Assembly (NCBI GenBank): GCA_024281175.1
Contig: JAMJTW010000036.1
Coordinates: 1 to 42,524 of the forward strand
DNA length: 42,524 nt
Direction: 5' to 3'
DNA from: Candidatus Thiovulum imperiosus
GTDB taxonomy: Bacteria > Campylobacterota > Campylobacteria > Campylobacterales > Thiovulaceae
How positions within the stretch are numbered: position 1 is the stretch's first letter; each line of letters starts with the position of its first letter. Below the pieces are notes generated by a model. It ran no database searches. It was not told where the DNA came from and was given only the letters and a program-made list of their open reading frames with translations. The translations under genes and the position numbers were made by a program. Below, in pieces: positions 13,708 through 42,247 of the stretch.

Positions 13708-15384
13708 ATGAGAAAAAATATAGAAGTAACAGTAAGCCACTATACAACTGCGGGAAAGAAAGAGGAAAATCAAGATTTTCATGAAATCTCTATTCCGAAA
13801 GAGCCTTTACTAATTACAAAGGGAGTAGCTTTTGCAATTGCTGATGGAATTAGCAGTAGTCCTGTAAGTGGAGAGGCGAGTAAAGTAACAGTTCTCTCCT
13901 TTTTAGAAGATTACTTTTCAACTCCAGAAACTTGGAGTGTTGAAAAGTCTGGAAAACATATTTTAGAAGCTACAAATAGTTGGCTCTACTCTCAAACACG
14001 GAAGAGCCAATATGAGATAGATAGAGAAAAAGGGTTTGTTTGCACATTTAGTGGAGTCGTTCTCAATTCCAGAACAGCACACATTTTTCATATTGGGGAT
14101 AGTAGGGTATATCGCTTTAGAAACTCAAAATTAGAACAGCTTACAGAAGACCACAGAGTTTATATTTCAAAGAATAGTAGTTATTTGAGTCGAGCAATGG
14201 GTTCTGACTCAAAAGTGAATATAGATTTCAGTTCTGTTGGAGTTGAAAAGGGTGATATCTTTCTTCTAATGAGTGATGGAGTTTATGAATTTTTAGATGA
14301 TAAGTTTTTAAAAGAGAAATTGGAAAACTCTTTTGAAAGTAGTGCAAAAGAGATAGTTCAGAAATCTCTGGATTTAGGTAGTGATGACAATTTAACTCTT
14401 CAAATTGTGCGTGTTGATGAGGTTTCTGAAAAGAGTCTTGAAGAGTCTCTTAGAGAGGAGAAACCATTTCCAAAAATTCCAGAAGTTGGTGATGAATTTG
14501 ATGGATTTAAAATTGTTCGGGATTTGAGCAGAACAAGTCGAAGTCATGTCTATTTAGCAACTTGCAAAGAAGAGAGAGTTGTAATTAAAGTTCCATCAAT
14601 AGAGACTCAAAATGACTCTTTTGCAGTCGAAAGGTTTCTTTTAGAAGAGTGGATTGCAAAACGGGTAAACAGCAAACATGTTTTAAAACCATACCAGATG
14701 AAAAGAGAAAAGAGTTATATCTACAATGTTTCTGAATATATAGATGGAGTCTCTTTAGCTCAATGGATAGTTGATAATCCAAAACCGCAACTTGAAACTG
14801 TGAGAAAAATAGTTGAAGATATAGGAAAAGGTCTTCAAGCATTTCATCGAATGGAGATGATACACAAAGATATTCGATCTGAAAATATTCTTTTAGACAG
14901 AAATGGTGTTGTGAAAATTATAGATTTTGGCTCAACAAAAGTTCAGGGAGTTGGAGAAAATCATCACTCACTACTAGGAACTGCACTATACTCAGCTCCT
15001 GAATACTTTCTAAATGAGACTGGAACAAATCGTTCAGATATCTTCTCTCTAGCTGTTTTAACATATCATCTACTTTCAGGAAAATTTCCTTATGGAGTTG
15101 AAATTGCAAAAGCAACAACCTCATCAGCACAGAAAAAACTAAAGTATAGAACTCTTTATCCAAAACTACCTATCTGGATAGATGAGACTCTGAGAAAAGG
15201 TTTAGCTATAAATCCAAACGAGAGATATAGCGAACTTTCAGAATTTCTCTACGATTTAAGAAATCCAAACCAGAAATATCTCCAAACTGATAAACCACCT
15301 CTTTTAGAGAGAGAACCAGAAACTTTTTGGAAATATCTCTCTCTATTTTTTGGAGCTATATGTCTCTTTAGAATTATCACTTAA
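13708..15384 (+). CDS. Fused PP2C phosphatase and Ser/Thr protein kinase, membrane-tailed
   Basis: A 558-residue two-domain signalling protein. Residues 1-240 are a PP2C-type phosphatase with metal-binding ADG (D46), FHIGDSRVYR, LMSDGVYEF and GSDDNLTL. Residues about 262-530 are a eukaryote-like kinase with ATP lysine K294 (VVIKVPS), catalytic loop HKDIRSEN (D388, N393), DFG at 406-408 and APE in YSAPEYF. A single hydrophobic segment at the extreme C-terminus (about 540-557) suggests a tail anchor. Similar fusions lie beside nitrate-assimilation transporters in other proteobacteria, so control of FNT/cyanase nitrogen uptake is a reasonable inference. The target is unknown. Confidence 0.9.
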   Translation: MRKNIEVTVSHYTTAGKKEENQDFHEISIPKEPLLITKGVAFAIADGISSSPVSGEASKVTVLSFLEDYFSTPETWSVEKSGKHILEATNSWLYSQTRKSQYEIDREKGFVCTFSGVVLNSRTAHIFHIGDSRVYRFRNSKLEQLTEDHRVYISKNSSYLSRAMGSDSKVNIDFSSVGVEKGDIFLLMSDGVYEFLDDKFLKEKLENSFESSAKEIVQKSLDLGSDDNLTLQIVRVDEVSEKSLEESLREEKPFPKIPEVGDEFDGFKIVRDLSRTSRSHVYLATCKEERVVIKVPSIETQNDSFAVERFLLEEWIAKRVNSKHVLKPYQMKREKSYIYNVSEYIDGVSLAQWIVDNPKPQLETVRKIVEDIGKGLQAFHRMEMIHKDIRSENILLDRNGVVKIIDFGSTKVQGVGENHHSLLGTALYSAPEYFLNETGTNRSDIFSLAVLTYHLLSGKFPYGVEIAKATTSSAQKKLKYRTLYPKLPIWIDETLRKGLAINPNERYSELSEFLYDLRNPNQKYLQTDKPPLLEREPETFWKYLSLFFGAICLFRIIT

Positions 15385-15408: not shown

Positions 15409-16119
15409 TTACAAAGTTTCGAGTTTCCATTTAAGTTGGTGGTAAGTTCCAGAAACTTCTATTCCAAATTCCTTTCCCGATGAGGTAAGTTTCCAAATTC
15501 CATTTTGCTTTTCCTGAAAGCCTAAAGCCTCTAGTTTTAGATTTGTTTCTCTTCCTGAAAGTCCATGTAACTTTCCAAGTTCTGTTGGGAGAAAATAGGT
15601 TTTGGAAAAGTCTATGCCGAAGAGAGAAGAAACACTTTTCTCACCTAAGAGTTTTTGGAGAAGCAAAAGGCGAAAAGGCTTTGTTTCCTCGAAAAGTTCC
15701 ACGAGTTTTAGAGCTTCTTCATTTTTGGAAAGGAGTTCTGAAAAGTTTGGAGAACTTAAAGAGTAGCTTCCTGTTTTTCTGATACTTGGCAGAACTTCTT
15801 CCATAATCCACTCTTCAATTTTTTCCGCTTCTGGAAGTCGAGATTTTATGATAAGTCGCCAAACATCAGACTCTGGAATGAGTTTTGTTTGTTTCCAACT
15901 ATTCCCTAAAATTGGTTGTAAATCCAAGGGTAGCGTTTCACGACCCTTGAAAATTTCTTCAAAAGATTTAGCATGTTTGCAATGTCTAATAATTGCATCT
16001 TTTGTATTGGAGTAGCCTAGTAGTTCTGCTGTATCTTTTGCTAAAAATAGCTCTTTATTATCAAAAATAAATATTCTAATTGAAGAGTCATGGAAATTTT
16101 TAGTTATAATATTTTGCAT
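15409..16119 (-). CDS. BRO-N domain antirepressor-like protein
   Basis: About 236 residues from the ATG at 16119 (AAAGG upstream). Residues 8-120 match the BRO-N/Bro family: SIRIFIFDNKELFLAKDTAELLGY, then the DAIIRHCKHAK and LIPESDVWRLIIKSRLPEAEKIEEWIMEEVLPSIRKTGSY steps typical of phage antirepressors. The C-terminal part (about 150-236) is a helical, winged-helix-like module unlike the usual KilAC domain. Such proteins come from prophages or act as orphan DNA-binding regulators. An upstream frame extension to 16212 lacks family similarity. It is the downstream partner of a small XRE regulator. Confidence 0.82.
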   Translation of the reverse strand: MQNIITKNFHDSSIRIFIFDNKELFLAKDTAELLGYSNTKDAIIRHCKHAKSFEEIFKGRETLPLDLQPILGNSWKQTKLIPESDVWRLIIKSRLPEAEKIEEWIMEEVLPSIRKTGSYSLSSPNFSELLSKNEEALKLVELFEETKPFRLLLLQKLLGEKSVSSLFGIDFSKTYFLPTELGKLHGLSGRETNLKLEALGFQEKQNGIWKLTSSGKEFGIEVSGTYHQLKWKLETL

Positions 16120-16230
16120 ATGCAAATGACCTTTATTTGTATTGCAATAGGAATTATTGTGGCGATATTCCTGTTGCACACCAATTATAGAAGAAAAATC
16201 TATAAAAGTCAAAATATGTAAATTAAAAAA

Positions 16231-16811: not shown

Positions 16812-16832
16812 CCAGCCCCGAAAGGGGGCTGG
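16812..16832 (-). terminator. GC-rich hairpin downstream of the caspase-like gene
   Basis: CCAGCCCC and GGGGCTGG pair over eight bases with a five-base loop, unusually GC-rich for this window. Read on the minus strand it lies 64 bases past the stop of the caspase-like gene and is followed by TCTTTCACTCTTTTTT. It is therefore a plausible intrinsic terminator for that gene. Confidence 0.55.
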
Positions 16833-16870: not shown

Positions 16871-16895
16871 AAATAAAATTATTAAAAACAAAAAA

Positions 16896-18394
16896 TCACA
16901 AGTCACGAACACAGACGACGAAATCGCCATTAGTCTGGTAACTCCAGTCGTCAAACCCATCCTCGAAACCGACAATCCACGAAAGGGAACTATTTTTGTT
17001 ATATTTTATTGAAATCCATGTGCAAGATGGCAAAAATTGTGAAATTTCATTTTTGACATACCAACCTTGGCTTTGCATTGTATTTGTAAGCAAACTATTT
17101 GTTTCATCTAGGCTTGGAAGTCTCCAATTTGAATATCCAGAGAGTTCTAAATTTTCGCAATATTTCATAGCATTTTGCCAAGTAAAACTATTTCCTCTCT
17201 CTTTCTCCCACATCAAATTTGTCTTCTTATCAACAAAAACATCTTTGTAAATTCGATAAGAGTCTGTCTCTTTTTGAAGTGTTCCTGCTCTCTTTTCTCT
17301 CGCATTTTGCCCGTCATTTCGACCGACCGCAGGGAGTGGAGAAATCTTTGCTTTTGCCTCCGCTTCTTTTCTTTTCCTTTCGGCTTCTCTCTTTTCAGCT
17401 TCCGCCTCTTTTCGCTTTCTTTCGGCTTCTCTCTTTTCAGCTTCCGCCTCTTTTCGCTTTCTTTCGGCTTCTCTCTTTTCAGCTTCCGCCTCTTCCCGTT
17501 TCCGCTTTTCTTCCGCAAGTTGCTTTTGAAGTCTCTCTATTTCGGCGGTATCTTCTACTTTTACAACTTTCTCGACAACTTTCACAACTTCCTTTTCCAC
17601 TACTTTAGTTTCAGGTTTTGTTCCATCACCTCTCAAATAGAAGTTTCCAGAAATCGAAGAGTTTCGCCAAGGATTTTGAGTTCCCTTGCTCTCTTTCGAG
17701 ACATCAGTTCCAACATCTTTAAACATCTGTTCGAGTTCAACATCGCTTCTATCGATATGGTTCAGTAGATGTTTTGTAAAAAGTCCATTTTCGCCAGTTC
17801 CATCTTCAGCAGTTTCCCCTGAAGCAGTTGCATAAGCGATAAGAGTTCCCGTAGCTCCAGCCGTAGCAAGACCTTTTCCCGTATTTCTCAAATTCCGAAA
17901 AGGGTTATCTCGACAAGCATCAAGAATTGCCACATTTAGCTTGTTTTCAGAAACATTAAAACCCTCTAAAAGTCGATTGAGTCGAAAAGTTCTATATTTC
18001 AAATCAGCTTTGTTATTTACAACAGAGTCTTTTGCAATTAGGAAATTTTCTCCACTATTTTCAACTCCATGACCAGCATAGTAGAAAAGAGCAACTGTAT
18101 CTTTACTAAAACTCTTTTCAAATTCGTAGAGTTTCGCTTCCATCTCTTCAAGAGTTCCATTTTCAAGATAGAAGACTTGAAAGCCTAAAGATGTAAGTTT
18201 CTTTCTTGTCGCCCTACTATCATTCGTTGGATTGTCTAAATCCCCTATTGAGTCGTAATCTCCATTTCCAAAAACTAAAGCTACTCGATTTGAAGCAATT
18301 ATCGTCTGCTTTTCAGACTTTTCTGGAACTAAAATCCGCTCCTCTTTTCCACACCCCGCAAAAAGCAGAAAACTAAAATTAGATACCTCATCAT
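16896..18394 (-). CDS. Caspase-fold lipoprotein with coiled coil and DUF1566 domain (frameshifted start)
   Basis: A predicted envelope-anchored peptidase C14-like protein of about 499 residues once one base is restored. The start ATGs at 18394/18391 have an AGGAA ribosome binding site and encode MMRYLILVFCFL. The frame then breaks in a T5 run (A5 at 18360-18364 on plus); the other frame continues AGCGKEE, a lipobox, and stays open to the stop. The caspase domain starts ALVFGNGDYDS, with catalytic H109 in YYAGHGVE and C161 in LDACRDNPF. A charged coiled coil with 14-residue repeats follows, then a DUF1566/Lcl-type C-terminus (NLMWEKE...YSNWRLPS). An in-frame piece of the dispersed repeat sits between the coil and that domain. 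The gene may be inactive, slip-translated, or affected by a sequencing error. Confidence 0.78.
17313..17347. repeat. Dispersed palindromic element half-copy inside a coding sequence
   Basis: GTCATTTCGACCGACCGCAG then GGAGTGGAGAAATCT is a left half of the element found at 16572, 16708, 28824 and 42268. Here it lies in frame in the caspase-like gene and encodes the linker KISPLPAVGRNDG between the coiled coil and the DUF1566 domain. Confidence 0.7.
17378..17503 (-). repeat. Three 42-base tandem repeats encoding a 14-residue coiled-coil unit
   Basis: Copies at 17378-17419 and 17420-17461 are identical; the third at 17462-17503 differs at three bases. Each encodes the unit EAEAEKREAERKRK, two heptads long. 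Perfect identity of two copies implies recent expansion by slippage or recombination, changing coil length by 14 residues per step without altering the frame. Confidence 0.85.
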
Positions 18395-18406: not shown

Positions 18407-18426
18407 AAGGGGACTTTTATCCCCTT
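18407..18426. terminator. Hairpin between gltB and the caspase-like gene
   Basis: AAGGGGA and TCCCCTT pair around a six-base loop and are followed on the plus strand by a T run. Both flanking genes are on the minus strand, where the hairpin comes directly after the gltB stop and just before the ribosome binding site of the next gene. It may act as a weak terminator or as a message-stabilising stem. Confidence 0.5.
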
Positions 18427-34029: not shown

Positions 34030-36015
34030 CTATTTTCCAGTTATCTCTTTAATATCTGAGATTTGTAGAAATTGTGAGTAGATGGAATTCATAAGAGCTT
34101 TTCGGTTTCTACGGATTTCTAAATCTTCAGCATTTACCATTACAGAATCGAAGAAAGAGTCTAGTTCAGGTTTTAAAGAGAAGAGAGCTTCTAACTTTTT
34201 GGAGTAATTTTGGAACTCCATTTGTGAAATTTCTAAACTTTTTTCCCAAAGTCTCTTTTCGGCTTCTTCAGAAAGGAGTTCTTCTTTAACTTCGTCAAAT
34301 TGACCATCTAAGATATTTGCGACTCTTTTGAAAGTTGAGAGAACTTCGGAGAAATCATCTCTAGCGACAAGATTTTTAGTAGCGATAACTTTCTTGTCAA
34401 TTTCTAAAATCTCCTTTTCAACAGAGAGAACAGATTTTACAATTGAGGGGTTTGTATCTTTGTAGTGGTGGATAACTCTTTCAAAGAAGAAGTTTTCAAG
34501 TTTTTGAAAATCAAACTCTTTGTAGAGGTGAGAAACTTTTGAGAAGAGTTGTGATATATCTATTTGGAAGTTGTGTTCAAGAGAAATTCTAACAATACCA
34601 TTTACAGCTCTACGAAGTCCAAACGGGTCTCTTGAACCTGTTGGATTTTCTCCAATTGAGAAGAGAGCAAAGAGAGTATCTAATTTGTTGGAGATTGCAA
34701 CAATTGCTGATAGTTTTGAACTTGGAAGAGAACCGCCCTCACTATTTGGAAGATACTGTTCTCGAATTGCTATTGAGACCTCATCAGCTTCTCCAAGTTT
34801 TTCAGAGTAGTATCCTCCCATAGTTCCTTGAAGTTCTGTAAACTCATAAACCATTTCAGAAAGTAAATCAGCTTTTGCAATAGAGACTGCTCTATTTAGT
34901 GATGAGGTCTTTTCACAAGGAAAAAGTTTTGAAATCTCTTTCTCTCTCTCTACCTTTTCAGCAAGATTTCCTAAACCCTTTACAAAAGTTATCTTCTCAA
35001 GACCCAAAGTTTGCAGACCATTCTTTAAATCGTTTCTGTAAAAGAAGAGTGCATCTGAAAGTCTCGCTCTTAAAACTCTCTCATTTCCAGAAATTACCGT
35101 AGAGAAATCATCTGTCAGTGCATTTGAAACAACTACAAATCTATTTGTAAGTTCTCCATTTCTGTACACTGGAAAGTATCTCTGATGTTCTCTCATTGAA
35201 GTCACAATCACTTCATCAGGTAGTTCTAAAAACTCTTCTGAAAACTCTCCTAAAAGTGGAGTCGGTTCTTCTGTAATCGCTATTATCTCTTGTAAAAGTT
35301 CACTCTCAACTTCTACTTTCACTCCTTCCGCTCTCTCTATCTTCTCAATCTCCTGACGAATTGCAATCTCTCTATCTCCCTGCTGAACTAAAACTCCCTG
35401 TTTTGGCAAATTACAGAAGTAATCTCCAACATGAGTTAAAAATATTTGAGGCTCTTTTGAATTTCTATGTCCAAAAGTTTCTGGTCTGCTTTTCACTCCA
35501 AAAACTTCCAAATCTATACTCTCTTTTCCAGACATCGCTACAATTGAGTGAATTGGTCGAATAAATGAGAACTCTCCATTCCCCCACCTCATTGACTTTC
35601 CAAAATTTAAAGATTTTAAAAATCTCTCTAACATCTCTTCCAAAACTACGGAAATATCTTTTCCCTCTTCTACTCTTGAGTAGTAGAGAACTTCTTTCCC
35701 ATCTTTTGAAATCTCTCCAACTTCTGAAACTGCAATTCCACACTTTCTTGCAAATCCCTCTAACGCTTTTGGATTTTTCTTTGCAATTGCAACTGGTGCT
35801 CCAAAAAACTCTAGCTTCTCCTCTTTCTGGACTCTCTCAAAATCTTTATGCCAAAATACAAAACGGCGAGGTGTGTAAAAAAATTTGAATTCACTATCAA
35901 ATCTATTCTCTTCTAACTCTTTTCTCCACTTTTTCTCTATGTTCGGTAACTCTTTTAAAAATGGCTCTGCTGGTAACTCTTCAACACCTATCTCTATTAG
36001 AAAGTTCTCTCTCAA
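34030..36015 (-). CDS. glyS: Glycyl-tRNA synthetase beta subunit
   Basis: About 661 residues; the beta chain of the alpha2-beta2 glycyl-tRNA synthetase. It opens FLIEIGVEELPAEPFLKELP, the family N-terminus. RFVVVSNALTDDFSTVISGNERVLRARLSDALFFY mid-protein and the late VFVMVNAEDLEIRRNR-like segment (VMVNAEDLEIRRNRKAL) are standard. No ATG is well placed. I chose TTG at 36015 (AGAGAAG close upstream) because it starts three residues before the conserved part; a TTG at 36048 is the longer alternative. glyQ is not in the window. Two YGATGAGGT copies lie within it. Confidence 0.93.
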   Translation of the reverse strand: MRENFLIEIGVEELPAEPFLKELPNIEKKWRKELEENRFDSEFKFFYTPRRFVFWHKDFERVQKEEKLEFFGAPVAIAKKNPKALEGFARKCGIAVSEVGEISKDGKEVLYYSRVEEGKDISVVLEEMLERFLKSLNFGKSMRWGNGEFSFIRPIHSIVAMSGKESIDLEVFGVKSRPETFGHRNSKEPQIFLTHVGDYFCNLPKQGVLVQQGDREIAIRQEIEKIERAEGVKVEVESELLQEIIAITEEPTPLLGEFSEEFLELPDEVIVTSMREHQRYFPVYRNGELTNRFVVVSNALTDDFSTVISGNERVLRARLSDALFFYRNDLKNGLQTLGLEKITFVKGLGNLAEKVEREKEISKLFPCEKTSSLNRAVSIAKADLLSEMVYEFTELQGTMGGYYSEKLGEADEVSIAIREQYLPNSEGGSLPSSKLSAIVAISNKLDTLFALFSIGENPTGSRDPFGLRRAVNGIVRISLEHNFQIDISQLFSKVSHLYKEFDFQKLENFFFERVIHHYKDTNPSIVKSVLSVEKEILEIDKKVIATKNLVARDDFSEVLSTFKRVANILDGQFDEVKEELLSEEAEKRLWEKSLEISQMEFQNYSKKLEALFSLKPELDSFFDSVMVNAEDLEIRRNRKALMNSIYSQFLQISDIKEITGK

Positions 36016-36111
36016 ATTCTTCTCTTTTCTCAAAATTGTAACATTCAATCAAAAAATAAAAAATCCACTCTGTACTATCTCTTCGAAAAAAATTTATAAG
36101 AAAGGTAAACA
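36016..36111. promoter_or_regulatory. Divergent promoter between glyS and the SLOG locus
   Basis: A 96-base gap between divergent genes. For the plus-strand locus the AAAGG ribosome binding site lies 8 bases before the ATG at 36112. A TATAAGAAAG segment at about 36090-36100 is a candidate -10 box. Nothing resembling an operator is obvious. Confidence 0.35.
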
Positions 36112-36615
36112 ATGAAAAAGTTAAACCACTTTTTTACAATTGGCATTACAGGACATCGAGATTTACTTCAAAGCGAATTAGGTAAGTATAAAGATGAGTT
36201 ACGAAACTATTTTTCTGGAATTAAAGCAGAAAAAGAGATAGTTCTTCTTTCACCTCTTGCAGATGGTGCTGACCGACTCTTTATAGAAGTTGGCATAGAG
36301 TTAGGACTTCGCTATAAAACCGTTCTTCCTATGCCTATTGAAGAGTATTCTCAAGATTTTTCTAAAGAGTCTTTACAAGAGTTCTACTCTCTCTATTTGG
36401 GTGCAAGTGGAAAAGAAATCTTACCTTGGAGTGGTAATAGAAATGAGCAGTATAGAGCAGTTGGAGAGTATATCGCAAAAGAGAGTGATGTTTTAGTAGC
36501 GATGTGGGACGGCGAAAGTGGAAAGTATGCTGGAACTGGAGATATTGTGAAATTTAGAACTCAAAATTTACATGCTCCTTACTATCACATTCCAGTTCAT
36601 AGAAGCGTTTCGTAA
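36112..36615 (+). CDS. SLOG-fold (DprA/LOG-like) predicted nucleotide-binding protein
   Basis: A 167-residue cytosolic protein with the SLOG Rossmann-like pattern. It has IGITGHRDL at 10-18 (phosphate/nucleotide loop), VLLSPLADGADRLFIEVGIELG at 44-65, LPMPIEEYSQDF at 72-83, then a polar strand-helix AKESDVLVAMWDGESGK (122-138) and GTGDIVKFR at 141-149. This order is that of SLOG-domain proteins (relatives of DprA, LOG and conflict-system nucleotide sensors). I infer nucleotide-derivative binding or hydrolysis. It stands first in a plus-strand run with three lipoproteins, a barrel and a TPR-S-like protein, 56 bases before the first lipoprotein. Confidence 0.8.
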   Translation: MKKLNHFFTIGITGHRDLLQSELGKYKDELRNYFSGIKAEKEIVLLSPLADGADRLFIEVGIELGLRYKTVLPMPIEEYSQDFSKESLQEFYSLYLGASGKEILPWSGNRNEQYRAVGEYIAKESDVLVAMWDGESGKYAGTGDIVKFRTQNLHAPYYHIPVHRSVS

Positions 36616-36671
36616 AAAAATAAAAAAAGTTGAAAGTAGTATTTCAATACTTAAAAAAGAAAGGGTAAAAG

Positions 36672-37967
36672 ATGAGTTTTAAGTTAAGTTTAGCAACAGC
36701 AGTAGCTATCTCTCTTGTAGGTTGTGGTTCTGATAGTGGAGATGATACTCCTGAAGTTGTAACACCTGAAGTTGTAACACCTGAAGTGGTAGAAGAAATA
36801 AAAGAGGAAGTAACTAGCGACCCTATGAAAAGCTTAGTTGAACCATCACAAAATAGGGGTGGAGTAGTTGATGCAGAAAGAGCTGCTGATAAAAATGAAA
36901 CAGTTGATATAAATTTTTCTATTGGAAGAACTGTAAAGTTGAGAGAAACAAAAGCTACTCTTAACCCTGTGGTTAAATATGAGATGACTATTAAAAATAT
37001 TGATGGTAATGAACATACTTTTTTCCCTGTGTCCAGACAGTTTGACTTTTATGATATGGATGGCGACTTTGTTTTAGAAAATGTAAATGCGATTTATGGT
37101 GAGCAACTTCGAATTAGTGTTTATGGAAAAGATGCTGAAGGCAATATTGTATCGGCTTTAAGAAATGCTGAATTTACAGTTGGAGATAACTTTGAAATTG
37201 AACTTCACTTGGCTATTAAACAAGGACAGTTATACTCTTTGGATATTATATCATTCAATCTTCACATTGAAAATGGCTTATACTCCCTAAAACCAAATAT
37301 TGCTTATCCATATACAAATGATTTAGTAAACTGGAACTATAAGTTTCTCCAAATTAATGGGACTGAAGAGGGTGAAAATTACCAACAGCAAAGAGCAGGT
37401 ACAATGGAGGCTAGCACACTTGAAAATTGGTTCGAATTTACTAGCAGTAATATTTATAAGTTAGAGATAGAAAGCCAAGCTCAAGTAGAAGCTCTTGTAA
37501 ATCTTCAAACTGAACGCAACTTTTTTTGCTTATACTTAGAGGCAAATGAAAGCACGGATATTCTTAATTATACAGAATGTTTCAGCATTTTTTCTGAGGG
37601 GAATGGAGAATTTACTCATCAAGAACACAATTTGATTAGAGGCGATGAGAAGTTTAGTGGTTGTAATGTAGAAGTTACTCTTGAACCAATTGAACTTGAT
37701 AACTTTGATGTTTCTGTTGTTGGTGTTAGCCGAACAATTGAACCTGCTGGAGATATAAATCTTTCTGTAAATGAAGAAGGATATACAGTTGTTTATATGC
37801 CTTTCATTAATACTCCTGAAGACGGAAATAACTCAAATGATAGATTTAGCGAAAGTCTAAAAGTTGAGTTAGAAGTTTCTGTTGAGAATGGTGATGACTT
37901 CAACAGCACATATTTTGTTGATGTTTACTCTTCTGATAGCACACGATACTGTCCAGCTACTAATTAA
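36672..37967 (+). CDS. Predicted lipoprotein 1 of a three-member paralogous set
   Basis: A 431-residue protein with lipoprotein signal MSFKLSLATAVAISLVGC (lipidated C18) after an AAAGGG ribosome binding site. A low-complexity linker contains three PEVVT-type repeats encoded by a 15-base tandem repeat (36750 onward). Two beta-rich regions follow, including RISVYGKDAEGNIVS and GQLYSLDIISFN. The second shares GxxYSLDI(I/M)xFN with the next gene. The last part contains paired cysteines. I know no named family and infer a surface-exposed or periplasmic beta-sandwich protein. Confidence 0.7.
   Translation: MSFKLSLATAVAISLVGCGSDSGDDTPEVVTPEVVTPEVVEEIKEEVTSDPMKSLVEPSQNRGGVVDAERAADKNETVDINFSIGRTVKLRETKATLNPVVKYEMTIKNIDGNEHTFFPVSRQFDFYDMDGDFVLENVNAIYGEQLRISVYGKDAEGNIVSALRNAEFTVGDNFEIELHLAIKQGQLYSLDIISFNLHIENGLYSLKPNIAYPYTNDLVNWNYKFLQINGTEEGENYQQQRAGTMEASTLENWFEFTSSNIYKLEIESQAQVEALVNLQTERNFFCLYLEANESTDILNYTECFSIFSEGNGEFTHQEHNLIRGDEKFSGCNVEVTLEPIELDNFDVSVVGVSRTIEPAGDINLSVNEEGYTVVYMPFINTPEDGNNSNDRFSESLKVELEVSVENGDDFNSTYFVDVYSSDSTRYCPATN
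36750..36792 (+). repeat. 15-base tandem repeat in lipoprotein 1
   Basis: The unit CCTGAAGTTGTAACA occurs at 36750-36764 and 36765-36779, followed by the variant CCTGAAGTGGTAG. It encodes PEVVT steps in the linker after the lipidated cysteine. Copy-number change would lengthen or shorten the linker in frame. Confidence 0.8.
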
Positions 37968-37973
37968 TTTCTA

Positions 37974-37991
37974 GGAGACTATTGAGTCTCC
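37974..37991 (+). terminator. Intercistronic hairpin between lipoproteins 1 and 2
   Basis: GGAGACT-ATTG-AGTCTCC forms a seven-base stem, with an outer TTTCTA/TAGAAA pairing around it. It lies between the two lipoprotein genes. No run of U follows directly, so it is more likely an attenuating or message-stabilising stem. The next gene has no clear ribosome binding site, and this stem ends 14 bases before its ATG. Confidence 0.45.
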
Positions 37992-38004
37992 CTCTTAGAA
38001 AATC

Positions 38005-39072
38005 ATGAAATTAAAATCATTTATACACATACTTCTTTTGCTTCTATTTTCTGCTTGTCAAACTGAAACAATTTCTGCAAAAGATAAAATGCTTGGAAAA
38101 GAAAAAGATTTCTCCATTGTAGTTAAATCAATGCTAAGAACCTCAAAAAGTCTTGTTCAGCCAATAGCAACTCAATATAAAATAAAAATTTGGGAAAAAC
38201 AATTAGATGGAAATTGGGTAATTAAATATGGGGCTTCTAAGTTTAGAGATATGGATTTTTTAGATGACTATTTTCAAATATCACTACCATTAGTTTATGG
38301 CAATTATTATAAAGCGTCAATAATTGGTTTTGATAAATATGGAAAAGAAGTATCTGCAAATCCAAATATATATTTTAGAGCTGATGTCTCAAATAAAATA
38401 GAAGTTTCCCTTTATAGACTTAATGGAAGAATTTATTCTCTCGACATTATGAATTTCAACCCTATACTATTTGGTGAAAGTTTCACAATGAAACCTAAAA
38501 TTATTTTTCCATTTTCTGATATTGAAAAAGATTTTTCCATTTCTCTGACACGAGTTTATTCTAATACAGAAGAATTTTTTGTAAATATTAATAAATATAA
38601 TTTAGATGTATATACAGCTGATGTTGAATTTGACAAATATTTTTCTATAAATAGTAATAGCGAAGAAAATGTTTTTTTATTTGAAGCTTTATCGCCATAC
38701 GATGATATTTCAAGTTATGGTGAACTTTTCTCTGTTCAAAAGCAAATCGATGAAAATGGAACTGCTACACTTCAAATTCAGCCAATAGATTTAATGAAAG
38801 ATTACTCTATCAAACAGACTCCTGAAGAGATAGAAATCACTATCTTCTTTCAAAATTTAGAGGGTGTAGATATTTTTGTAGATGGAAGTAGAGTTGAGGC
38901 AGTAGAAGAGAGTGAAGAAAAAGCTATTTTCAGATTTTCACCTTTAGAATTTCCAGACAAACAGTTTGATTTTAGACTTCGAGGAGAACTTCAGAGTGGA
39001 AAGAGCTATTTAAGTTACTACTCGATTTATCTCGATACAAAAATTTCAAAATATAATTTAGTTGAGGAGTAA
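38005..39072 (+). CDS. Predicted lipoprotein 2 of the paralogous set
   Basis: A 355-residue protein with lipoprotein signal MKLKSFIHILLLLLFSAC (C18). Mature regions repeat the plan of its neighbour: IKIWEKQLDGNW, YYKASIIGFDKYGKEVSANP, GRIYSLDIMNFN, then KPKIIFPFSD. Sequence identity to lipoprotein 1 is modest but block order and spacing agree, which supports paralogy. The protein is AT-rich in codon use and has almost no cysteine after C18. The ribosome binding site is weak, so translation may depend on the preceding gene. Function unknown. Confidence 0.7.
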   Translation: MKLKSFIHILLLLLFSACQTETISAKDKMLGKEKDFSIVVKSMLRTSKSLVQPIATQYKIKIWEKQLDGNWVIKYGASKFRDMDFLDDYFQISLPLVYGNYYKASIIGFDKYGKEVSANPNIYFRADVSNKIEVSLYRLNGRIYSLDIMNFNPILFGESFTMKPKIIFPFSDIEKDFSISLTRVYSNTEEFFVNINKYNLDVYTADVEFDKYFSINSNSEENVFLFEALSPYDDISSYGELFSVQKQIDENGTATLQIQPIDLMKDYSIKQTPEEIEITIFFQNLEGVDIFVDGSRVEAVEESEEKAIFRFSPLEFPDKQFDFRLRGELQSGKSYLSYYSIYLDTKISKYNLVEE

Positions 39073-39075
39073 AAA

Positions 39076-40140
39076 ATGAGATTTATTTTAGGTTTAGCAA
39101 TACTTTCAAGTATTTTTGTAGGTTGTAGTAGTAGTGTTGGAGGTGATGAAAATAGCTCCATAAAAGTTGCAGGAGCAGATTGGAGAGTTGGAACAAATGT
39201 TACAACAAATATCCAATTCAAAATAGCTAAAACAGAGAGAAGCACAAAATTTATTGGACTTCCAGCAGATGAGTATTTAGTAAAAATTTCACATTTAGAA
39301 GTGAATGGTAGTTGGAGTAGTATAAAATTACCACCTCACAATGCTGAAACTATTTCACTCCAAACTTTGAACCAAATTCATAAAGATAGAAGTCTAACTT
39401 ATATCTTTGCAGACACCTACAAAATAGATGTTTATGGATATAGAGATGGTTTTTTAGTTTCTCAAAAAGAGAATACTCGTTTTATAATAAATGATGAGTT
39501 GAGAGATATAGTATCTATCACCCTCTATACAGTAAACAGCAATATCTTTCAGCCAGTAGTATCAGATATAGATGTAATGGAATATAGTTTTGGTGATGAG
39601 GTCTCTTATAAATTCCATTTCAACTTAGAATTGCCATATGTTGAGGACAATCTCTCTTTCAATTATGCAATTTATAGAGAAGATAGTTCAACTTCTATTT
39701 TCAAAGGAGATATTTCAAACCCAACCAATAGTGTAAAAGTAATTTCTGGTTATGTAGATGATATATTTGGTGAAAAAAACTCAACTATTTTTTCCCTAAA
39801 ACTCTTTTCAAATCGAGATGATTATGTTCAATTTACAGAATTTTTCGGAGTTGAGAAAAATGAATTGGATAGCTCAAGAGTTGAAATTCTGGAGTCTATT
39901 GATTTAAATTGCAATACAGAAATAGTTCTAAATTTAAATAGTAACTTTGATATTACAAATATCACTTGGGAAAGTGAAAACGGTATCTACTTTGAAGTTT
40001 CAGAAAACCAAAGAAGTATAGTAATAGATGAAAATATATTTTCAGAAAACTTCTCTGTTAGCATAGATTACTCTCTGAATGGAGTTGATTACCAGAAAGT
40101 CTATTACATAACTTCCGCGGAAATATCATGTACAGAATAG
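39076..40140 (+). CDS. Predicted lipoprotein 3 of the paralogous set
   Basis: A 354-residue protein with signal MRFILGLAILSSIFVGC (C17) and a GAGGAG ribosome binding site, three bases after lipoprotein 2. Blocks such as YKIDVYGYRDGFLVSQ, VSITLYTVNSNIFQPV and FNLELPYVEDNLSFNY line up with the other two. One pair of late cysteines is present. The stop overlaps the first copy of a 30-base duplication that supplies the next gene's start. Function unknown; probably assembles with the other two at the outer membrane. Confidence 0.7.
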   Translation: MRFILGLAILSSIFVGCSSSVGGDENSSIKVAGADWRVGTNVTTNIQFKIAKTERSTKFIGLPADEYLVKISHLEVNGSWSSIKLPPHNAETISLQTLNQIHKDRSLTYIFADTYKIDVYGYRDGFLVSQKENTRFIINDELRDIVSITLYTVNSNIFQPVVSDIDVMEYSFGDEVSYKFHFNLELPYVEDNLSFNYAIYREDSSTSIFKGDISNPTNSVKVISGYVDDIFGEKNSTIFSLKLFSNRDDYVQFTEFFGVEKNELDSSRVEILESIDLNCNTEIVLNLNSNFDITNITWESENGIYFEVSENQRSIVIDENIFSENFSVSIDYSLNGVDYQKVYYITSAEISCTE

Positions 40141-40178
40141 CTTTCTTAGGAAATATCATGTACAGAATAGCTTTCTTA
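40119..40178 (+). repeat. Perfect 30-base tandem duplication at the lipoprotein-barrel junction
   Basis: The unit GGAAATATCATGTACAGAAT then AGCTTTCTTA occurs at 40119-40148 and 40149-40178 without a mismatch. It contains the start codon of the barrel gene and the stop of lipoprotein 3 in copy 1. Because 30 is divisible by three, both ATGs (40128 and 40158) are in the same frame. Confidence 0.95.
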
Positions 40179-40735: not shown

Positions 40736-42247
40736 ATGGGAAAAATTACAAATGCTCAAAAGGCTACAAAGCTATTTGAGTTAGAAAGTGATAAGGTTGG
40801 TGTTACGCCTGAAGAGATAGCAAAATATTTCGGAAATGTGTTTGAAGCCAATATAGTTGATAAGTGGATTGCAAATGAAGTTGATGTTTCAGCACCTGCT
40901 AAAAAAGTCATAGCTTCAAAATTGGAATATACACAGAAAATTTGGAGTGAAGATTTTAAAACGGTAGAAGATTTTGAAAAGAGAATTCATGGCTTTAAAA
41001 GAGACAAAGAAAAGTCTAAAACCTGTTATGAAGTTGATAAGAAGATAACAGAAACTACCTGTAATTCAATTCGATTTAGAATTATTGTAGAGGAGAAAGC
41101 TGATGAGGTTGGTCAGACTCCAAAGCAAATAGCTAATTATATAAATGGTGTTATGGAAAAGAGCTTTGAACTTCGAGATATTTTTGGAAAAGAGAAAAAG
41201 AGCTATGTTACTTCAGTAACAGTTGGTAATTGGCTTAAAAGCAATACAGATTTGAAAGATACTAAACAAATTCTTATAAATCTTGCATTAAATTTAGAGC
41301 CAACTATTTGGACAGATACATTTTCGTCTGAAGTTGATATGAGAGAACAGTTACCAAACTACTTTAAAGATTGGGCAGGTGGAGTTACAGTTGTTAAAGA
41401 TGGAGTGCACCAACTAAATGATTTAGATAAAGAGAACTCACTAAAAAATTTTAAAGAGAAAAAAAAAATTGATATTTCCAAATTAGATTTAGAGAAAGAG
41501 GGAATGAAATTTCGTCTCTTTTTAGCTCAAATGCTTTATGAGAAGAGACAGCTTAAAGAGGGTTTTGAAGTTTTAGAGAGCATAGAAGATAGTGAGTCTG
41601 AATTTTCGATCAAAAATGAGAATGAAGTCGATTTCATCAAAGCCCTGATTTTTGATAAGTTAGGAAAGAGAACAAAAGCAAAAATTATTTTCAAGAAGTT
41701 GTCAAATAGAGGCTACAATGTATATAATCCAGAAGTTGATTTTCTTATTGGAAGTCAAATCAAAAGAGAAGCATTCTATGGAAAAGATGGAAAAGAGTTA
41801 CTTGAAGAACTTGATGTAAAAACTCTCAATATTGCTCTAACTTACTATATGAAGTATTTTTCCGAAATTACTAAAATGGGAGAAAAGAGTAAAAAATATT
41901 CAGAAAGATACTACTACGCTATAAATGTAGCTTATCTTTTTGAGATGCTAAATCGAATTGAAGATGAAAATCGAGAGAGTGCTTCAGCTATTTTCAGAAA
42001 AATAGGTTGGAGATACAATCCAGACTGTTTTTGGGAAACGATGACTCAAGCCGAATTTCTTGTTCTTCAAAATAGAGTTGAAGAGGCAGAAAAAGTCTTT
42101 GAAGATTATGCTAAAAGAAAAAACATAGATGAGGGTAGTCTTCAGAGTAGCTTAGACCAACTCAAAGCCTTTGCTCACTTTACAGAAGATGAGAGTGCAA
42201 TCGAGTTCCTTGAATTTTTAAAAGAGTTTGCAAAATCTGAACTCTAA
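40736..42247 (+). CDS. Sensor protein with duplicated helical N-terminus and TPR-S-like C-terminus
   Basis: A 503-residue cytosolic protein (AAGGAT before the ATG). The N-terminus is an internal duplication of a helical, helix-turn-helix-like unit: residues about 10-85 and 113-207 share KVGVTPEEIAKYF / EVGQTPKQIANYI, VDKWIANEVDV / VGNWLKSNTDL and IWSEDFKTVEDF / IWTDTFSSEVDM. Residues about 255-503 look like TPR-S/DUF4071: RLFLAQMLYEKRQLKEGFEV, RYYYAINVAYLFEML, then CFWETMTQAEFLVLQNRVEEAEKVF. TPR-S domains pair with nucleotide-sensing effectors in conflict systems. Location downstream of a SLOG gene fits that theme; the actual role is unknown. Confidence 0.72.
   Translation: MGKITNAQKATKLFELESDKVGVTPEEIAKYFGNVFEANIVDKWIANEVDVSAPAKKVIASKLEYTQKIWSEDFKTVEDFEKRIHGFKRDKEKSKTCYEVDKKITETTCNSIRFRIIVEEKADEVGQTPKQIANYINGVMEKSFELRDIFGKEKKSYVTSVTVGNWLKSNTDLKDTKQILINLALNLEPTIWTDTFSSEVDMREQLPNYFKDWAGGVTVVKDGVHQLNDLDKENSLKNFKEKKKIDISKLDLEKEGMKFRLFLAQMLYEKRQLKEGFEVLESIEDSESEFSIKNENEVDFIKALIFDKLGKRTKAKIIFKKLSNRGYNVYNPEVDFLIGSQIKREAFYGKDGKELLEELDVKTLNIALTYYMKYFSEITKMGEKSKKYSERYYYAINVAYLFEMLNRIEDENRESASAIFRKIGWRYNPDCFWETMTQAEFLVLQNRVEEAEKVFEDYAKRKNIDEGSLQSSLDQLKAFAHFTEDESAIEFLEFLKEFAKSEL

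What the first reader, a model, noticed from the sequence alone, without database searches (positions are those of the whole stretch)
18340..18394. Caspase-like lipoprotein gene is out of frame inside its signal peptide
The good start (AGGAA, then ATGATG at 18394-18389) reads MMRYLILVFCFL, while the lipobox AGCGKEE and the whole caspase domain lie in the frame that needs one more base. The break falls in a T5 run (18360-18364), and the full span of 1499 bases is exactly one short of a 499-codon gene. No ATG, GTG or TTG opens the downstream frame before residue 85, which is inside the caspase domain. This may be off-phase slippage, programmed frameshifting, recent inactivation of a potentially toxic protease, or an error.
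Basis: seen in the sequence. Interest (0 to 1): 0.55.

Follow-up and report, generated by a model that had tools for sequence, protein, structure and literature searches.

The report
Broken copy of a self-diversifying caspase
A bacterial caspase-like surface-protein gene has lost its reading frame inside its export signal; close relatives in the same genome are intact, and the tail of the protein is of a kind that a retroelement deliberately scrambles, so this looks like a recently silenced member of a fast-varying receptor family.

Summary
The frame break is real in the sequence as given: the ATGATG start reads 21 codons to a stop, while lipobox, caspase and C-terminal domains lie in another frame with no ATG/GTG/TTG before 18143. 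This removes the slippage argument. The larger finding is what the gene belongs to. Its last ~30 codons are a variable region of a diversity-generating retroelement (DGR) whose template, Avd and reverse transcriptase sit on contig C22; in an 83-base core 13 of 19 mismatches in the window copy fall on template adenines (11 of 11 and 10 of 12 in sister targets). Six of 12 caspase loci in the genome end in such a region. Downstream of the break the frame is intact and was under purifying selection (dN/dS 0.22), so the lesion is recent, or a consensus error; recurrent broken caspase copies favour real loss. DGR targets with caspase domains are known from cyanobacteria.

The parts
18389..18394 (-). 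ATGATG start; the second ATG is the one homologous to the paralogues' start
18342..18391 (-). Leader cassette (signal peptide up to the lipobox), shared with caspase genes C5, C22 and C25
18366..18372 (-). Place of the one-base length difference against the three distinct in-frame paralogue leaders
18360..18364 (-).
18329..18331 (-). TAG that ends the frame opened by the ATGATG start
16896..18338 (-). Intact downstream frame (480 codons and stop): caspase domain, charged linker, Lcl_C domain
18141..18143 (-). First ATG/GTG/TTG in the downstream frame, inside the caspase domain
17637..18287 (-). Peptidase_C14 domain; His at 18069-18071 and Cys at 17913-17915 present
17359..17494 (-). Charged linker coded by a 42-base tandem repeat (3.2 copies)
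16905..17237 (-). Lcl_C (DUF1566-type) domain
16879..16990 (-). DGR variable region, partner of the template at G000:C22:37843-37954; 13 of 19 core mismatches at template adenines
16812..16832 (-). Hairpin with 8-bp stem behind the variable region, found after 6 of 8 such 3' ends
18407..18426 (.). Hairpin of the gltB 3' end, also present behind gltB in the same-genus genome; the caspase gene begins right behind it

Best explanation
The gene is a dispersed (remote) target of a diversity-generating retroelement: a caspase-like lipoprotein whose C-terminal Lcl_C receptor domain is rewritten at template adenines by the reverse transcriptase encoded on contig C22. This copy, placed directly behind gltB, has recently lost its frame by a one-base length difference inside its leader, a few bases 5' of the T5 run, so that neither the lipoprotein nor an active caspase is made. 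Shown: frame break, homology of the leader, template/variable-region pairs with adenine bias, Avd and RT, intact downstream frame. Inferred: that the change is in the organism and not only in the assembly, and that intact relatives are exported lipoproteins whose variable tail binds a ligand and whose caspase acts on binding.
For: Leader alignment. DGR: Avd and RT, template and variable regions with adenine bias, only one template-like match in the genome. Caspase part dN/dS 0.22 with no further lesion in 480 codons. Broken relatives: C8 fragment, C31b with Ser for the active-site Cys, G001 C30, C42 and C65, G002 C116. No split gene seen among 29 other window ORFs given to Pfam, 8 of which had no match.
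Against: No reads and no second genome of the species, so an error cannot be excluded; one contig of the assembly (C25) is a whole-contig palindrome. The window variable region has 6 of 19 mismatches off adenine, so it was not recently rewritten from the present template. Avd stays under the curated cut-offs of Pfam and NCBIfam. No fold or activity was shown; the structure model was poor.
Confidence: 0.6

Rival explanations
1. Sequencing or assembly error: the gene is intact in the cell and the consensus is one base short in the leader, for instance because reads from several near-identical leaders were collapsed.
For: Four distinct, nearly identical leaders in one genome; a whole-contig palindrome shows that this assembly has at least one odd structure; everything downstream is intact.
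Against: No split gene seen among 29 other window ORFs; the break is in no long homopolymer; broken caspase copies of other kinds occur in this genome and in relatives.
Confidence: 0.3
2. Programmed or phase-variable slippage at the T5 makes some full-length protein.
Against: The same T5 is in an in-frame paralogue; no shift is needed in the leaders of C5, C22, C25, C31 or of G001 C36 and C89; the run is short.
Confidence: 0.05
3. Reversible off state: leaders are exchanged among the caspase genes by recombination, and this copy is a parked one that a conversion event could switch on.
For: Leader DNA is 43-44 of 48 identical between copies whose caspase regions are 55-65% identical in DNA (binomial tails 2e-7 to 2e-5); exact leader matches occur only at caspase genes.
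Against: Only one such off copy was seen; the sequence 5' of the ATG in the window copy is not shared with the paralogues; reuse of a module at duplication, or constraint on the leader, could also keep leaders alike.
Confidence: 0.05

Closest known systems
Cyanobacterial DGRs with remote variable proteins that carry orthocaspase-like domains (PMC7517822; passages seen)
   Same: N-terminal caspase-type domain, C-terminal hypervariable lectin-type domain, targets dispersed over the genome
   Different: That paper says most cyanobacterial variable proteins are predicted cytosolic; here the leader has a lipobox, the variable domain is Lcl_C, and this copy is broken
DGR targets with DUF1566 domain (PMC4159848; passages seen)
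   Different: The passages seen name no caspase domain
Conflict systems of multicellular bacteria with DGR-diversified sensors and caspase effectors (PMC10907252, PMC7159879; passages seen)
   Same: Protease effectors together with hypervariable lectin-fold sensors
   Different: No MoxR, vWA or VMAP gene was seen among the 30 window ORFs scanned with Pfam; the leader predicts export

Membership tests
Diversity-generating retroelement (window gene as remote target) | Template/variable-region pair with mismatches on template adenines | tested here: met
   Window 13 of 19 core mismatches on adenine, hypergeometric 9e-5; C22b 11 of 11; C25 alone not significant, 11 of 25, P 0.06
Diversity-generating retroelement (window gene as remote target) | DGR-type reverse transcriptase near the template | tested here: met
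   C22:37934-38989, PHROG 1423 E 3e-105; RVT_1 68 bits over cut-off
Diversity-generating retroelement (window gene as remote target) | Avd accessory gene | tested here: met
   C22:37368-37727, PHROG 'Avd protein of DGR' E 3e-11; under the curated cut-offs in Pfam and NCBIfam
Diversity-generating retroelement (window gene as remote target) | Active mutagenic retrohoming | not testable with these tools
   Needs population sequencing or an assay
Caspase-like peptidase (Peptidase_C14) | Domain and His/Cys dyad | tested here: met
   125.5 bits against cut-off 21.4; His 18069-18071 and Cys 17913-17915; sequence match to MALT1 paracaspase E 1.6e-13. Activity not tested
Bacterial lipoprotein | Signal peptide and lipobox in frame with the start | tested here: not met
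   Not in this copy; met in C5, C22 and C25 by reading the sequence
Programmed frameshift gene | Shift site conserved among homologues | tested here: not met
   Leaders of paralogues and of same-genus homologues are in frame without a shift

The most novel reading that the evidence does not exclude
The caspase lipoproteins form a repertoire that is varied at both ends: a DGR rewrites the receptor tail, and a shared leader cassette is exchanged among the copies, so that copies with broken leaders are parked 'off' genes whose variable tails drift until a conversion event puts them on the surface.
Probability: 0.06. Interest if true: 0.75.

Novelty: new member of a known kind. Interest (0 to 1): 0.42.

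Why it matters
It turns an isolated frameshift into a question about a protein family: one retroelement diversifies the tails of several caspase-like surface proteins in one genome, copies of which are repeatedly disabled. If intact members trigger a protease on ligand binding, this would be a diversified recognition-and-response system outside the cyanobacteria, and the broken copies would show how selection treats it.

Tried and rejected
T5 slippage: rejected, because the alignment gap is elsewhere and C22 has the same T5 in frame. Leader in viral contigs: one exact 19-base match, in a phage gene of the other strand with no caspase, taken as chance. Second reverse transcriptase at C10: no Avd or Lcl_C gene among the ORFs of its 3.3 kb locus and only one template-like match in the genome, so not taken as a second DGR. 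Genome-contig search with the protein: one weak relative, over the Lcl_C part only, in a deltaproteobacterial MAG. Single-sequence structure model: mean pLDDT 41.7, not used for fold claims and no fold search run. Rfam: nothing in the window. Promoter and terminator scans near the gene are at chance level. Solved-structure search with the small Lcl_C protein gave only weak xylanase matches, E 0.04 and up, not used. Paper searches with Thiovulum were a guess at the organism and led nowhere; the organism is not identified.

Full report
OBSERVATION. On the minus strand the start ATGATG at 18394-18389 reads MMRYLILVFCFLRGVEKRSGF and stops at 18331-18329. The lipobox, a Peptidase_C14 domain (17637-18287; PF00656, 125.5 bits against a cut-off of 21.4), a charged linker coded by a 42-base repeat and an Lcl_C domain lie in another frame, open from 18416 to 16896, whose first ATG, GTG or TTG is ATG 18143 inside the caspase domain. 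The only CTG of that frame in the leader, at 18368, would leave a signal peptide of a few residues.

WHERE THE BREAK IS. A 19-base piece of the leader has 5 exact matches in the genome, all at caspase genes: C5, C22, C25 twice and the window. C25 is a whole-contig palindrome of 72,032 bases; its arms differ at 7 positions in the inner 9.4 kb part examined and at none in the outer 18 kb, so its two copies count as one and the leader has four distinct copies. Three read in frame; the window copy does not. In the alignment the gap falls between the T4 ending at 18369 and the codon at 18368, not in the T5 at 18364-18360; C22 has the same T5 and is in frame. This removes the basis for slippage at the T5. 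The sequence before the ATG differs too: C5, C22 and C25 share an AAAAAGGAG-type stretch there, whereas the window copy begins right behind a hairpin of the gltB 3' end that is present in the same-genus genome as well. In the four relatives of the same family looked at, something else follows gltB each time (read by eye), so the caspase gene looks like an accessory arrival at this place.

WHAT THE GENE IS. The caspase parts of the window gene and the C25 gene differ with dN 0.041 and dS 0.188 (ratio 0.22, 238 codons), but their Lcl_C parts with dN 0.26 and dS 0.39 (ratio 0.67, 136 codons). That contrast led to a diversity-generating retroelement on C22: caspase lipoprotein gene 35402-37243, Avd 37368-37727, template 37843-37954, reverse transcriptase 37934-38989 and a small Lcl_C protein with a signal-peptide-like start at 39259-39681. 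The reverse transcriptase matches PHROG 1423 (E 3e-105) and Avd matches the PHROG named 'Avd protein of DGR' (E 3e-11); in NCBIfam and Pfam the Avd match stays under the curated cut-offs. An ungapped scan of the sequence held at that time found relatives of the template at the 3' ends of targets on C22 (two), C5, C30, C31 and in the window at 16879-16990. A BLAST of the window's variable region against the whole own genome found the same places, C25 and the template, and otherwise only short weak matches. In an 83-base core with 25 template adenines, chosen after seeing the alignment, the mismatches on adenine are C22b 11 of 11, C5 10 of 12, C22a 6 of 7, C30 6 of 7, window 13 of 19 (hypergeometric 9e-5), C31 11 of 19 and C25 11 of 25 (P 0.06). 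The window copy shares 5 of its 6 non-adenine differences with C25: these two have an older background and were not recently rewritten from the present template. C25, the most drifted, also lacks the 8-bp hairpin that follows 6 of 8 such 3' ends (C22a has it imperfectly) and that is missing at the template.

NOT A ONE-OFF. The C22 reverse transcriptase has a match in 7 of 40 genomes searched, the own genome included and several of them partial; the same-genus genome G001 has none. Caspase domains give 41 matches in five genomes; the own genome has 13, that is 12 distinct loci, of which 6 (C22, C5, C30, C31b, C25, window) end in a variable region of this DGR.

IS THE LOSS REAL. An intact 480-codon downstream frame under past purifying selection fits both a recent loss and an error. 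Broken relatives speak for loss. In the own genome C8 holds a caspase fragment followed by a detached Lcl_C frame, and C31b has Ser in place of the active-site Cys. G001 has a stop inside one copy (C30), an internal deletion in another (C42) and a truncation in a third (C65); G002 has one interrupted copy (C116). These were dissected by eye; the other loci were not all checked for frame, those of G004 and G015 least. None of 29 other window ORFs given to Pfam was seen split, but 8 of them had no match and so say little. Against: there are no reads and no second genome of the species, and the assembly has a palindromic contig. I put real loss at about 0.6, error at 0.3, slippage at 0.05 and a reversible leader-exchange state at 0.05.

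MECHANISM. Shown: template and variable-region pairs with adenine bias, Avd and RT, the order leader, caspase, linker, Lcl_C, and the frame break. Inferred from the families named: intact members are exported lipoproteins whose variable tail binds ligands and whose caspase cleaves on binding. DUF1566 as a DGR target is in print (PMC4159848, passages), and so are DGR targets with orthocaspase domains and remote copies in cyanobacteria (PMC7517822, passages) and caspase effectors near DGR-diversified sensors (PMC10907252, PMC7159879, passages). That Lcl_C is the present name of DUF1566 is recalled. A search for DGR with caspase gave 11 papers, 10 listed, and DGR with Campylobacterota 2 (listing only; that order is my guess). 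I saw no description of this family in the listings, but the library is partial and most of these papers were not read in full. The leader DNA is 43-44 of 48 identical between copies whose caspase regions are 55-65% identical in DNA, which suggests exchange of a module; this is the basis of the boldest reading.

Noticed in passing
G000:C25 (L064, L082, L083): The whole 72,032-base contig is a palindrome with 36 kb arms and a centre of about 204 bases: assembly artefact, hairpin end of a linear replicon, or a real inverted dimer.
   Followed up: partly
window 15409-16212; L065 4071-4763 and 862-1680; L064 upstream of 2385: Bro-N genes, and by eye a KilA-N-like gene on C25, lie next to caspase genes at three loci.
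   Followed up: partly
G015:C145 (L134): An independent DGR whose neighbouring target is a caspase plus FGE-sulfatase protein, 20 of 20 mismatches on template adenines.
   Followed up: partly
window 13708-15384: PP2C phosphatase fused to a Ser/Thr protein kinase; the kinase part matches PADLOC PD-T4-6 and MAD6 models.
   Followed up: no
window 40736-42247: TPR-S (tetratricopeptide sensor) match just above its Pfam cut-off, a domain recalled from conflict systems.
   Followed up: no
L070 1671-2966 (G000:C31): A DGR-target caspase with Ser in place of the active-site Cys, a likely inactive enzyme.
   Followed up: no
window 40119-40178: Two exact tandem copies of 30 bases at the junction of two ORFs.
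   Followed up: no
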